Assembly (NCBI RefSeq): GCF_028502605.1
Contig: NC_079236.1
Span: 496,001-560,000, forward strand
Source: Trichoderma breve
Taxonomy: Eukaryota > Ascomycota > Sordariomycetes > Hypocreales > Hypocreaceae
Reading direction: 5' to 3'
Length of the DNA: 64,000 bases
Shown here: positions 38,114 to 41,586 of the stretch, in pieces
Numbering within the stretch: position 1 is the stretch's first letter
How the letters are laid out: every line of letters starts with the position of its first letter
Program-made: the position numbers and the translations under genes
The notes under the pieces: model-generated
Told to the model about the DNA's origin: nothing
Databases searched by the model: none
The model's input: the letters and a program-made list of their open reading frames with translations, nothing else

Positions 38114-41100
38114 TCAGTTGCACGTAACAGTCGTAGGCTTGGAAACATAGGTGTCCGCCAATGAATGCTGCTCGTTCAAGCTTGTGTCCACCAACTTCGG
38201 GGCAGCAAAGATGACGGAGCTTCCCATGACTGGTGCATATTTCTTCACTGCTACCGGACGGAGCCCAGCACGGTCGAGGATAGAATCCCACTGTGACGCA
38301 GTCCGCTCGGAAGATCCAAATAGTGTGTACATCTGGAGATCAAGGCCTGCAGGCCAGACATGAGATCCTTGATCGGCAATGACAACTTCATCAATTAGCA
38401 CCAGTGAATCAGCCGACATGGACGGCACAATGTTAGACAGGATCTGAGCCGCCTTATCGTCATCCCAGTTGTGCAGAATGGCTCGCAGGTAATAATACTT
38501 GGCTCCTTTAACCACAGTTAGTTACTTATCCAAGTTCAAATATTCGAAACACAAGACTTACCCTTGACGGGTTGTGTGTTGAAGAAATCGTGTGCCATCA
38601 GCTGGAATCCCTTGACGTCCGAGGCATTTTTGATCGTCTCCTCACGGTCCTGAACCACCACTCGACCAGCCAGTTCAGGATACTTGGCCAGTAAATGCTT
38701 TGCTTGGTGGCCGGTGTTACCGCCAATATCCACGAATACCGGACCTTCGTGATCACTGATCACAGCAGATTCGAGCGGGATCACATCGAGACAGTTACCT
38801 TCTTTGGGGATACCCATGAGGCTTTGGAAATCCTTCAACAGGTCTGGATGCTGCTTCAACCAAGGGAAGAGGTCCAGTTCCGTATTGAGACCCTTTTGAA
38901 GAGCAGAAGCCTGTGGTCGGTTTTGGTATCCCGTCTCCTTTAGGAAGTCGGGCAGCGCTTGGAAGGCAGGGCTGCTGACTGCATGGAAGAAGCGCATGGG
39001 GCTCTCGATTCGAGGATCTGCCAAAGCGTATGTCATCTTCCTGGCCACATATTGATCCGGAGCAGTCTCTGCCGCAAGGCGATTGGCAACCAAGTAGCGC
39101 ATGATGCGGCCAACAAGAGTCGGGTCAGCCATGGTGGGCTTGGCCAGCTCTTCGGAAGACAAAGGCGTCTTGCTCTCCGCTAGAGACTTGAAGACTCCGA
39201 GATCACCACCAATCTTGATAAGTGCAATTTGCCGACCCTGTTTGAGGAACATCATTAGCAACACGTCGATGACAAGTAATATTGTTTTTCTCTATGTACT
39301 TACAGCATTGAGGAAGCGCAGCATACTGTCGTAAGGAGTTTCAAGTTCCTCTGCAGATTCTTGCAACGACGCAATCAAGCGGTGCCTGTTGGATTCATCA
39401 AGGGATGCTGGCGGGATACTCTTCTCGGAAGCCACGAGGCCTGCCATGAGACTTGCAACTGACTGGTCTTTATTTTTGCTGTTCCCATTCAAAAGCTTGT
39501 CCCCGTTAGTGGCGTCATTGTTGTGAGTCTCGCTGATCCCATTGGTCTCAACATGACCATTTTGCAATGTCTTCTTCGCACCTTTCGACTCACCGTTCAG
39601 GAATGAAAGTGGGTCATGACGCGTGAAGCTGACTTCTGCTTTCTTAGCGGCGGTCAACCCCAGTTGACCATGCTCAAGGCGTGGTGCTAGACCGTCAATA
39701 GAGTCAAGAGTGAAGTTGTCAATGTTGAGGGAATCCTCGGGGCGGACCATGCGACGTCCCTTGAGTGTCTTTAGAATAGACTGCTCTTCAGGTGTCAGCT
39801 TCTTCTCAAGTTCATCGAGAGCCTTGCGGTTGCTCTCATCGTAAGCATCGCCATCGAGGCCGAGTTCCTTGAGCTTCTTCACCAGGGCTTCCTTCTCCTC
39901 GAAGGAGACATGAGCAAATGCTTTGAAGCAGAATTCCACAGTCTTGGAAATTTCGGCCTGGGTCAGCTTTCCTCTGGCGTCTGCATCAACTTGACCTTGG
40001 ATAACTGTAATAGAGAATGTTAGAATGCTCATGCGGCGTAGAAAAATAATCTGAAATTGACATACTGGGTCTAAAGAGATCAAATGCTCTTTCAAAGGTC
40101 TCCTCATCGAAGTCATTGATAACAGGCTCGTCTTGAGACCTGATCTGCTTCAATGCACTCGAGACTACCACGAGGAAGCGAGTGTAGCTCTCGGCTGTCT
40201 TCTTATCGTGCCATGATGAGGCAACTTCCTCACTGCAATCTCCTCGAATGGCCGCAGCGATTGTTGTAGCTGCCGACAGACCGCCTGAAAGAGCCAGGTG
40301 GACGCCCGAGGAGAAAAAAGGATCAATGAAAGAACCGGCATCTCCGGCGATGCGAACACCCGGGAATGCATACTTTGAGGCACTATATGACCAGTCAGAC
40401 GCTGACTTGATTTCCGAAACGAGTTCGGCGTTGGCAAGTAGCTCCTTAATGCCGGGAACGAGGTCCAGAGATTCCACGTAGAAGCCTTTGGAAGATGGCT
40501 CAGCCATTTCTCGCTTCTTCTTGGCGGCCATTTCCTGGTTTTGGACAACTCCAACCGAGTGACGGCCATTGTGGAGAGGGATGAACCAAACCCATCCACT
40601 ACCGTCTAAGGAATAGCAAAGATTTGGTTAGTGAATCACCTTTAAGATTGTAAGAGAGAGTTCAAATGAGCACCGGAGTATACCTTTGAGTGCTTCGAAA
40701 TACGGTGCGCCCTCTTTGTGCGTTCCAACACCGTGAACTCCGCCATTCTTCCAATAGCCCCAGCTAGCAACGTTCTTCAGACCCTGGTTATATGATCGAT
40801 TCTTCAGATACTTGGTGCTGACCAAACCTGCTCGTCCTGACGCATCTACGACATAGTCAAACGAAACTGTGCCAGAGCTGCCATCTTTGCGAGTCCAAGT
40901 GGCAGATACGGGGCGACCAAGGCTCTGAGAGTCAGAAGTTGGTGGAGCAAACTCAATGGAGGCTACCTTGGTTTCGTCGAATGTCTTGACACCACACTCC
41001 GCTGCATGCTTGAACAGCAACTCGTCTGCCTCGGATCGAACAACGTTCCAGGCGTAGCCTCCAGGTCCACCGGCTGCGATGAAGTCCGTATCTGGAATAA

Positions 41101-41586
41101 GAGAATTAGCCAATGGTCTGTCACTTATTGGGGCTATTGAAGCAGATGCTGCTAGGTGGTAATTTGAAGACTTACATGTTTCTGGTCGAGACCAATTGAG
41201 ACGGAAAGCACCGCCTTTCTGTTTCTGAGAGTCAGCCAATACTTCTCTCTTCCTCTGTGCATACAGTGTACTAAGATTAAGTAACACTGTAGAAAATGAG
41301 TACCTTGACATTAAACCCATGGGCATCCCACTTTTCGTAGGCATCGATAAATTTGAGAAAGTGTCGCATAGAGGGAAGCATGCTTTCGCCAATGTGATAT
41401 CTAATATATGCGTGAGATAGGCCAATCTATGATTCAAGAGCGATCTAGTGATACCTACCTCGGGAATTTTTCTGCCTCAAGGAGGACTACTTCGATACCC
41501 TCTCGAGCAAGAGCCGAAGCGGCGTAAGAGCCTGCTGGTCCGCCACCAATTACCAGCACCGTGCACTGTTCCGGGATGGTGGCCAT
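38114..41586 (-). CDS. Bifunctional flavin-dependent halogenase / SAM O-methyltransferase fusion (AoiQ-like)
   Basis: Eight exons, complement of 41459-41586, 41304-41400, 41176-41224, 40684-41091, 40066-40605, 39304-40004, 38562-39237 and 38114-38505, close to 996 residues. Residues 1 to about 545 are a flavin halogenase: FAD motif GGGPAGS near the N-terminus, [14 protein letters not shown], the halogenase motif WVWFIP, and the [12 protein letters not shown] segment. A 43-residue Asn/Gly/Lys-rich linker follows. Residues from about 589 are a class I plant-type O-methyltransferase: dimerisation helices, SAM motif [10 protein letters not shown], and [10 protein letters not shown] with the catalytic histidine. 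Linker and both flanking domains lie in one exon without a stop, so the fusion is genuine. The precedent is AoiQ of A. oryzae, which dichlorinates an aliphatic carbon and methylates phenols of diaporthin-type isocoumarins. Divergent from the thioesterase gene across a shared 929-bp promoter. Confidence 0.92.
39463..39591 (-). other. Interdomain linker of the halogenase-methyltransferase fusion
   Basis: About 43 residues (roughly 546-588) rich in Asn, Gly, Lys and Thr, with no predicted fold. They separate the end of the halogenase ([10 protein letters not shown]) from the first helix of the methyltransferase. The segment lies inside a single 701-nt exon, so it cannot be an artefact of joining two genes by a mis-called intron. 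Confidence 0.8.

What the first reader, a model, noticed from the sequence alone, without database searches (positions are those of the whole stretch)
38114..41586. Halogenase and O-methyltransferase fused in one protein
One eight-exon gene encodes an intact flavin halogenase (WVWFIP), a 43-residue linker and an intact SAM methyltransferase. The junction lies inside a single 701-nt exon with no stop, so the fusion is seen directly. The only characterised precedent I know is AoiQ of A. oryzae, which gem-dichlorinates a non-aromatic carbon and methylates phenols. A second fused enzyme in a different gene context would help map what this family accepts.
Basis: partly seen in the sequence, partly recalled or inferred. 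Interest (0 to 1): 0.75.

Follow-up and report, generated by a model that had tools for sequence, protein, structure and literature searches.

The report
Known fungal halogenase–methyltransferase fusion (Dia5/AoiQ)
A mould of the Trichoderma group carries a gene whose single protein both adds chlorine and adds methyl groups; it is really there and intact, but it belongs to the known AoiQ/Dia5 enzymes of the dichlorodiaporthin pathway and is not a new kind of enzyme.

Summary
In detail: an eight-exon minus-strand gene (41586 to 38114) encodes one 994-residue protein with an intact flavin halogenase and an intact O-methyltransferase, joined inside a 701-nt exon. It is not new. The protein is 96% identical to a Trichoderma harzianum protein, and fused relatives occur in many fungi. 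Its neighbours match the dia (dichlorodiaporthin) gene set: non-reducing PKS with no thioesterase found, metallo-beta-lactamase, FAD oxidoreductase, SDR. PMC13301986 reports deletion of the T. reesei counterpart dia5, and that a T. harzianum AoiQ homologue gave dichlorodiaporthin in yeast. Most likely function: gem-dichlorination of the 1,3-diketone of dehydrocitreoisocoumarin with loss of acetate, plus 6-O-methylation. What I add is modest: fused proteins are not one clade in either domain tree, so the arrangement was gained or lost more than once, and two further fused groups appear, for which my paper searches showed no characterised member. The AflR-type regulator in the window has no zinc cluster that I could find.

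The parts
38114..41586 (-). FDH-OMT fused gene (AoiQ/Dia5 family), 8 exons, 994 aa
   Evidence: Gene model; Pfam; 96% identity over 100% of the query to T. harzianum P0001
39586..41586 (-). flavin-dependent halogenase part (residues 1 to about 545; GGGPAG 14-19, Lys75, WVWFIP 230-235)
   Evidence: tail end set by stand-alone relatives
39457..39585 (-). linker, residues about 546-588, variable in length among relatives and low in predicted confidence
38114..39456 (-). O-methyltransferase part (residues about 589-994; SAM motif DIGGNTG 809-815, catalytic-type His876)
39304..40004 (-). exon 6, 701 nt, carrying halogenase tail, linker and methyltransferase start without a stop
42516..43690 (+). 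metallo-beta-lactamase-fold protein (DiaB/Dia2 kind), two exons inferred by eye
   Evidence: Pfam Lactamase_B in 42902-43690; start read
44537..50269 (+). non-reducing PKS SAT-KS-AT-PT-ACP, no thioesterase found (DiaA/Dia1 kind); exact start and introns not worked out
   Evidence: three pieces scanned
50953..52544 (-). FAD-linked oxidoreductase (DiaD/Dia4 kind)
   Evidence: PF01565 in the 52029-52544 piece; weak BagG/BagK-type match in the 51399-52001 piece; the 50953-51441 piece was not scanned
53623..54570 (-). AflR-domain protein without a zinc cluster, 315 aa
55310..56125 (+). short-chain dehydrogenase (DiaC/Dia3 kind); ATG at about 55331

Best explanation
This is the Dia5/AoiQ enzyme of a dia (dichlorodiaporthin/diaporthinic acid) cluster in a Trichoderma of or near the T. 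harzianum complex. The NR-PKS, with the lactamase-like protein, most likely makes dehydrocitreoisocoumarin. The halogenase domain, using reduced FAD, chloride and O2, dichlorinates the carbon between two side-chain carbonyls, which leads to loss of acetate. The methyltransferase domain methylates the 6-hydroxyl with SAM, the SDR reduces the side-chain ketone, and the FAD oxidoreductase oxidises dichlorodiaporthin to diaporthinic acid. Shown here: the gene, its intact domains, its neighbours and its place in the family. Inferred from published relatives: every reaction step.
For: 96% identity over the full query to T. harzianum P0001, 90% to T. virens P0003, 86-87% to P0004/P0005, 74% over 97% to the A. 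parasiticus protein P0014 of 1012 aa (AoiQ is given 1014 aa in PMC9144378). The window protein lies with these in one supported clade in both domain trees. The neighbours match the dia set in kind except for the regulator (gene list in PMC13301986). The T. reesei deletions and the yeast result for a T. harzianum homologue are read from PMC13301986. The methyltransferase keeps a His where LepI has Arg, and Lys75 lies where RadH has Lys.
Against: No metabolite, transcript or assay from this organism. The published scheme is itself not settled: in T. reesei dia2 (lactamase-like) and dia3 (SDR) were dispensable in vivo, against the A. oryzae in vitro work (PMC13301986). No zinc-cluster regulator was found in the window. 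A further PKS and an NRPS flank the set, so a merged pathway is not excluded. The sequences of T. reesei Dia5 and of DiaA were not compared under those names, and Liu et al. 2021 could not be read.
Confidence: 0.93

Rival explanations
1. The gene is transcribed or spliced as two separate proteins, a halogenase and a methyltransferase.
For: Separate pairs exist: P. nalgiovense has two genes (PMC13301986), and databases list separate models, e.g. A. nidulans ANIA_10884 and ANIA_10889.
Against: Exon 6 runs through the junction without a stop. 42 database proteins cover both domains at nearly full length. The A. nidulans halogenase model already contains the first 38 or so residues of the methyltransferase, which points to a split gene model.
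Confidence: 0.03
2. The fused enzyme works on another substrate, for example a product made together with the neighbouring, probably highly reducing, PKS.
For: PKS-type frames start about 0.7 kb from the end of the listed SDR frame; A. oryzae AoiQ and its homologues differ in O-8 methylation (PMC13301986).
Against: The dia enzyme classes lie beside the gene, and characterised relatives share the pathway.
Confidence: 0.05
3. The methyltransferase part is a SAM-dependent pericyclase like LepI rather than a methyltransferase.
For: LepI is its best PDB match (E 2.5e-68).
Against: A His is kept (His876, at least 90% conserved in 41 fused proteins) where LepI has Arg. Deletion of dia5 removed the 6-O-methylated compounds in T. 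reesei (PMC13301986).
Confidence: 0.01

Closest known systems
Dia5 of Trichoderma reesei and the T. harzianum AoiQ homologue tested in yeast (both via PMC13301986)
   Same: Same fused architecture, same kinds of cluster genes, same genus; a T. harzianum protein, P0001, is 96% identical over the full query.
   Different: Whether P0001 is the very protein tested is not known; the species of the window was not identified; no product is known from it.
AoiQ of Aspergillus oryzae
   Same: FDH plus OMT in one chain of about 1000 residues, dia cluster; the A. parasiticus protein P0014 (1012 aa) is 74% identical over 97%.
   Different: AoiQ also methylates O-8, the homologues tested do not (PMC13301986). 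17 methyltransferase positions separate P0014 from the window protein, P0001, P0005 and P0124; which of them matter is not known.
NgvE/NgvF of Penicillium nalgiovense
   Same: Same pathway, halogenase and methyltransferase of the same families.
   Different: Two separate genes (PMC13301986); the P. nalgiovense halogenase P0077 is 70% identical in the halogenase part and branches away from the AoiQ group. That P0077 is NgvE is my inference.
RadH (PDB 8gu0) and LepI (PDB 6ix7)
   Same: Best solved-structure matches by sequence for the two halves.
   Different: Each matches one half only; LepI has Arg at the His position.

Membership tests
AoiQ/Dia5 fused halogenase-methyltransferase | FDH and O-methyltransferase in one chain of about 1000 residues | tested here: met
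AoiQ/Dia5 fused halogenase-methyltransferase | FAD motif, WxWxIP, Lys aligned with a RadH lysine | tested here: met
   Motifs; alignment; K75 at least 90% conserved in 41 fused proteins. That this Lys is catalytic is recalled, not tested
AoiQ/Dia5 fused halogenase-methyltransferase | SAM motif and catalytic-type His in the methyltransferase | tested here: met
   DIGGNTG 809-815 and His876; the role of the His is recalled
AoiQ/Dia5 fused halogenase-methyltransferase | falls in the clade of the T. harzianum, T. longibrachiatum and A. parasiticus fused proteins in both domains | tested here: met
   A set of 42 rows in the FDH tree and of 38 rows in the OMT tree (fused plus some separate or split models), SH-aLRT 100 each; 27 fused rows, SH-aLRT 99 and 98
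AoiQ/Dia5 fused halogenase-methyltransferase | gem-dichlorination of a 1,3-diketone and 6-O-methylation | not testable with these tools
   Needs an assay
dia gene cluster | NR-PKS SAT-KS-AT-PT-ACP without thioesterase | tested here: met
   in three pieces; one ACP found, frame ends just after it. Not compared by sequence with DiaA
dia gene cluster | metallo-beta-lactamase-fold protein, SDR and FAD-dependent oxidoreductase beside it | tested here: met
dia gene cluster | zinc-cluster protein DiaR1 (given as n/a for P. nalgiovense in PMC13301986) | tested here: inconclusive
   None found in the window, a motif cut by an intron not excluded; a zinc-cluster-only candidate lies 10.7 kb beyond its end
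LepI-type pericyclase | Arg in place of the methyltransferase His (role recalled) | tested here: not met
   His876 against LepI Arg

The most novel reading that the evidence does not exclude
The halogenase-methyltransferase fusion is not one invention: it was gained or lost several times, and besides the AoiQ/Dia5 clade there are two further fused lineages (Chaetomium type and Hypoxylon/Apiospora type), for which my searches showed no characterised member and which may act on other diketones.
Probability: 0.6. Interest if true: 0.35.

Novelty: already known. Interest (0 to 1): 0.15.

Why it matters
It matters little as a discovery, since family, cluster and reaction are published. It is useful as a clean natural relative. 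The compound class has gained interest because 8-methyldichlorodiaporthin was reported to inhibit plant cellulose synthesis (PMC13273347, title and passages). The domain trees point to fused lineages other than AoiQ that would be better targets for learning what such fusions accept.

Tried and rejected
Structure prediction of the fused protein (P0001 with 40 relatives) gave mean pLDDT 68 and pTM 0.46, with weak stretches in the halogenase as well as the linker; I use it only as support for a loose linker and ran no fold search. The comparison of AoiQ-like P0014 with relatives taken as O-6-only gave 17 positions, too many to name a determinant. The trees are quick trees without bootstrap; gain and loss cannot be told apart because the root is not known. 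I considered that separate models inside the AoiQ clade show splitting of the gene, but several look like split or cut gene models, so I dropped them before the AU tests. FDH: 11 doubtful models (P0032, P0033, P0034, P0040, P0043, P0044, P0045, P0050, P0054, P0055, P0057) and 4 near copies (P0070, P0072, P0073, P0117) out of 110 rows. OMT: 13 rows out of 92, namely 8 separate models with 59% identity or more and 5 long-branch rows, one of them fused (P0048). The fused label was set from domain content, but I had seen the first trees before running the tests. I did not work out the species; only Trichoderma kinship is supported. Liu et al. 2021 (PMC8434754) is not held, so its results are quoted through PMC13301986. 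Papers seen as passages only: PMC12139152, PMC13273347, PMC9144378, PMC11905480, PMC12871659, PMC8407142.

Full report
What is there. The gene reads on the minus strand from ATG at 41586 to the stop at 38114-38116. With GT-AG introns of 56-85 nt it has eight exons and encodes 994 residues; exon 6 (40004-39304) is 701 nt and contains the halogenase tail, the linker and the start of the methyltransferase without a stop. Other splice choices leave frames of 991-1009 residues. I took the set that keeps the conserved stretches; it has the length of the T. harzianum protein P0001 and matches it without a shift in both domains, 97.9% and 96.7% identical.

Domains. Pfam finds Trp_halogenase (94.9 bits), Methyltransf_2 (59.3 bits) and the O-methyltransferase dimerisation domain (30.5 bits). 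Among solved structures the best sequence matches are RadH over residues 3-523 and LepI over 605-965. The FAD motif, WVWFIP, a lysine where RadH has lysine, the SAM motif and the methyltransferase His are present; LepI has Arg at that His position. That the lysine and the histidine are catalytic is recalled from the literature on these families. The linker varies in length among relatives and has pLDDT under 50 at 528-589 in a modest model of P0001 (mean 68).

Relatives. A protein search scored 7,997 candidates and found 954 with E up to 1e-3, of which the best 120 are listed. The first four are full-length: T. harzianum 96%, T. barbatum 91%, T. virens 90%, T. longibrachiatum 87%. Fused relatives listed include Hypoxylon, Colletotrichum, Aspergillus, Chaetomium and lichen fungi such as Flavoplaca. 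Several carry the name 'flavin-dependent halogenase O-methyltransferase bifunctional protein', with or without 'putative' (P0016, P0018, P0035, P0042). Of 109 database rows that align to the halogenase over more than 400 residues, 47 are fused by my rule (methyltransferase alignment over 120 residues), 57 are not, and 5 look like split models. In the window's genome 1 of 5 scored candidates matched the halogenase family, the one in this gene; the search is exon by exon, so this is a lower bound.

Neighbourhood. Beside the gene lie a metallo-beta-lactamase-fold protein, a non-reducing PKS with SAT, KS, AT, PT and one ACP and no thioesterase found, an FAD-linked oxidoreductase, an AflR-domain protein and an SDR. 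In PMC13301986 the dia set is dia1 PKS, dia2 beta-lactamase-like, dia3 dehydrogenase, dia4 FAD-dependent oxidoreductase, dia5 halogenase/methyltransferase and diaR1 zinc cluster protein. The match is in kind; I did not compare these neighbours by sequence with the published proteins.

What is published. I read parts 1, 3, 4 and 5 of 6 and found passages, Table 1 among them, of PMC13301986. Deleting dia5 in T. reesei abolished dichlorodiaporthin and the 6-O-methylated compounds and raised citreoisocoumarin; deleting dia4 led to dichlorodiaporthin build-up; the main product is diaporthinic acid. Against the simple scheme, deleting dia2 changed nothing and deleting dia3 did not stop the pathway. 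The paper also reports that AoiQ homologues from P. nalgiovense, A. nidulans and T. harzianum gave dichlorodiaporthin in yeast, while A. oryzae AoiQ also methylates O-8, and that P. nalgiovense has two separate genes. It names homologous clusters in T. harzianum, T. virens and A. nidulans. Passages of PMC12139152 describe the gem-dichlorination of the 1,3-diketone followed by deacetylation; passages of PMC9144378 and PMC8407142 describe AoiQ. Hence the finding is already known, and I score it low.

Evolution of the fusion. In a tree of 110 halogenase rows the label fused/separate needs 11 changes, the 5 split models left uncounted. After 11 doubtful gene models and 4 near copies were dropped it needs 6, and one clade of all 48 fused rows (the window's included) is rejected (95 rows, log-likelihood 180 lower, p-AU 7e-50). 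In the methyltransferase tree the label needs 11 changes with 92 rows and 4 after 13 rows were dropped, and one clade of the 45 fused rows is rejected (79 rows, log-likelihood 170 lower, p-AU 5e-5). Among fused proteins alone, 42 from the database plus the window's, the same three groups appear in both trees: the AoiQ/Dia5 group (27 rows with the window's), a Chaetomium-type group (6) and a Hypoxylon/Apiospora-type group (8), with P0030 and P0048 apart. So the two domains travel together within groups, but fusion or splitting happened more than once. Quick trees, automatic gene models, long branches and an unknown root limit this. The listings of my paper searches showed no characterised member of the two other groups; I opened only some of the papers listed, so that is a statement about those searches only.

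The regulator. The AflR-domain protein at 53623-54570 has no zinc cluster. No complete Zn2Cys6 motif appears in a single frame of the window, looser half-motif scans gave only isolated matches, and none of the 150 scored zinc-cluster matches in the genome, out of 473 candidates, lies in it; a motif cut by an intron is not excluded. T. reesei DiaR1 is described as the reverse: 309 residues with a zinc cluster at R12-R52 and no activation domain. A 299-residue frame 10.7 kb beyond the window has its zinc cluster at residues 17-52 and no AflR match. A regulator split into two proteins is therefore possible but untested; the outer frame may as well belong to the neighbouring PKS.

Noticed in passing
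window 53623-54570 and L006:437-1336 (G000:C5, 10.7 kb beyond the window): AflR-domain protein without a zinc cluster beside the dia genes, listed as such in 23 of 23 relatives found, and a zinc-cluster-only frame outside the window that resembles the description of T. reesei DiaR1: perhaps a split regulator.
   Followed up: partly
P0022, Gaeumannomyces tritici RB601_000326: A 985-residue fused protein of the AoiQ group is listed for G. tritici, while PMC11905480 (passages) says the dichlorodiaporthin-like clusters of Gaeumannomyces lack an aoiQ orthologue; it may lie elsewhere in the genome.
   Followed up: no
window 5160-29951: One frame of 8263 residues without a stop: an NRPS with 8 adenylation, 7 condensation and 8 carrier domains found and a terminal reductase-type domain; the frame was cut in two for the scan, so a domain at the cut may be missed.
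   Followed up: partly
window about 56788-63028, minus strand: Frames of a second polyketide synthase, probably highly reducing, directly beyond the dia SDR; two of its pieces were scanned (58457-59989, 61301-63028). Whether it belongs to the same pathway is unknown.
   Followed up: no
A. nidulans P0033 and P0124: The A. nidulans halogenase and methyltransferase are listed as two proteins with the same longest-contig length (2831538), but the first contains the start of the methyltransferase: probably one split gene model.
   Followed up: partly
window 36750-37820: A cystathionine gamma-synthase/lyase-type PLP enzyme next to the fused gene; not in the published dia gene list.
   Followed up: no
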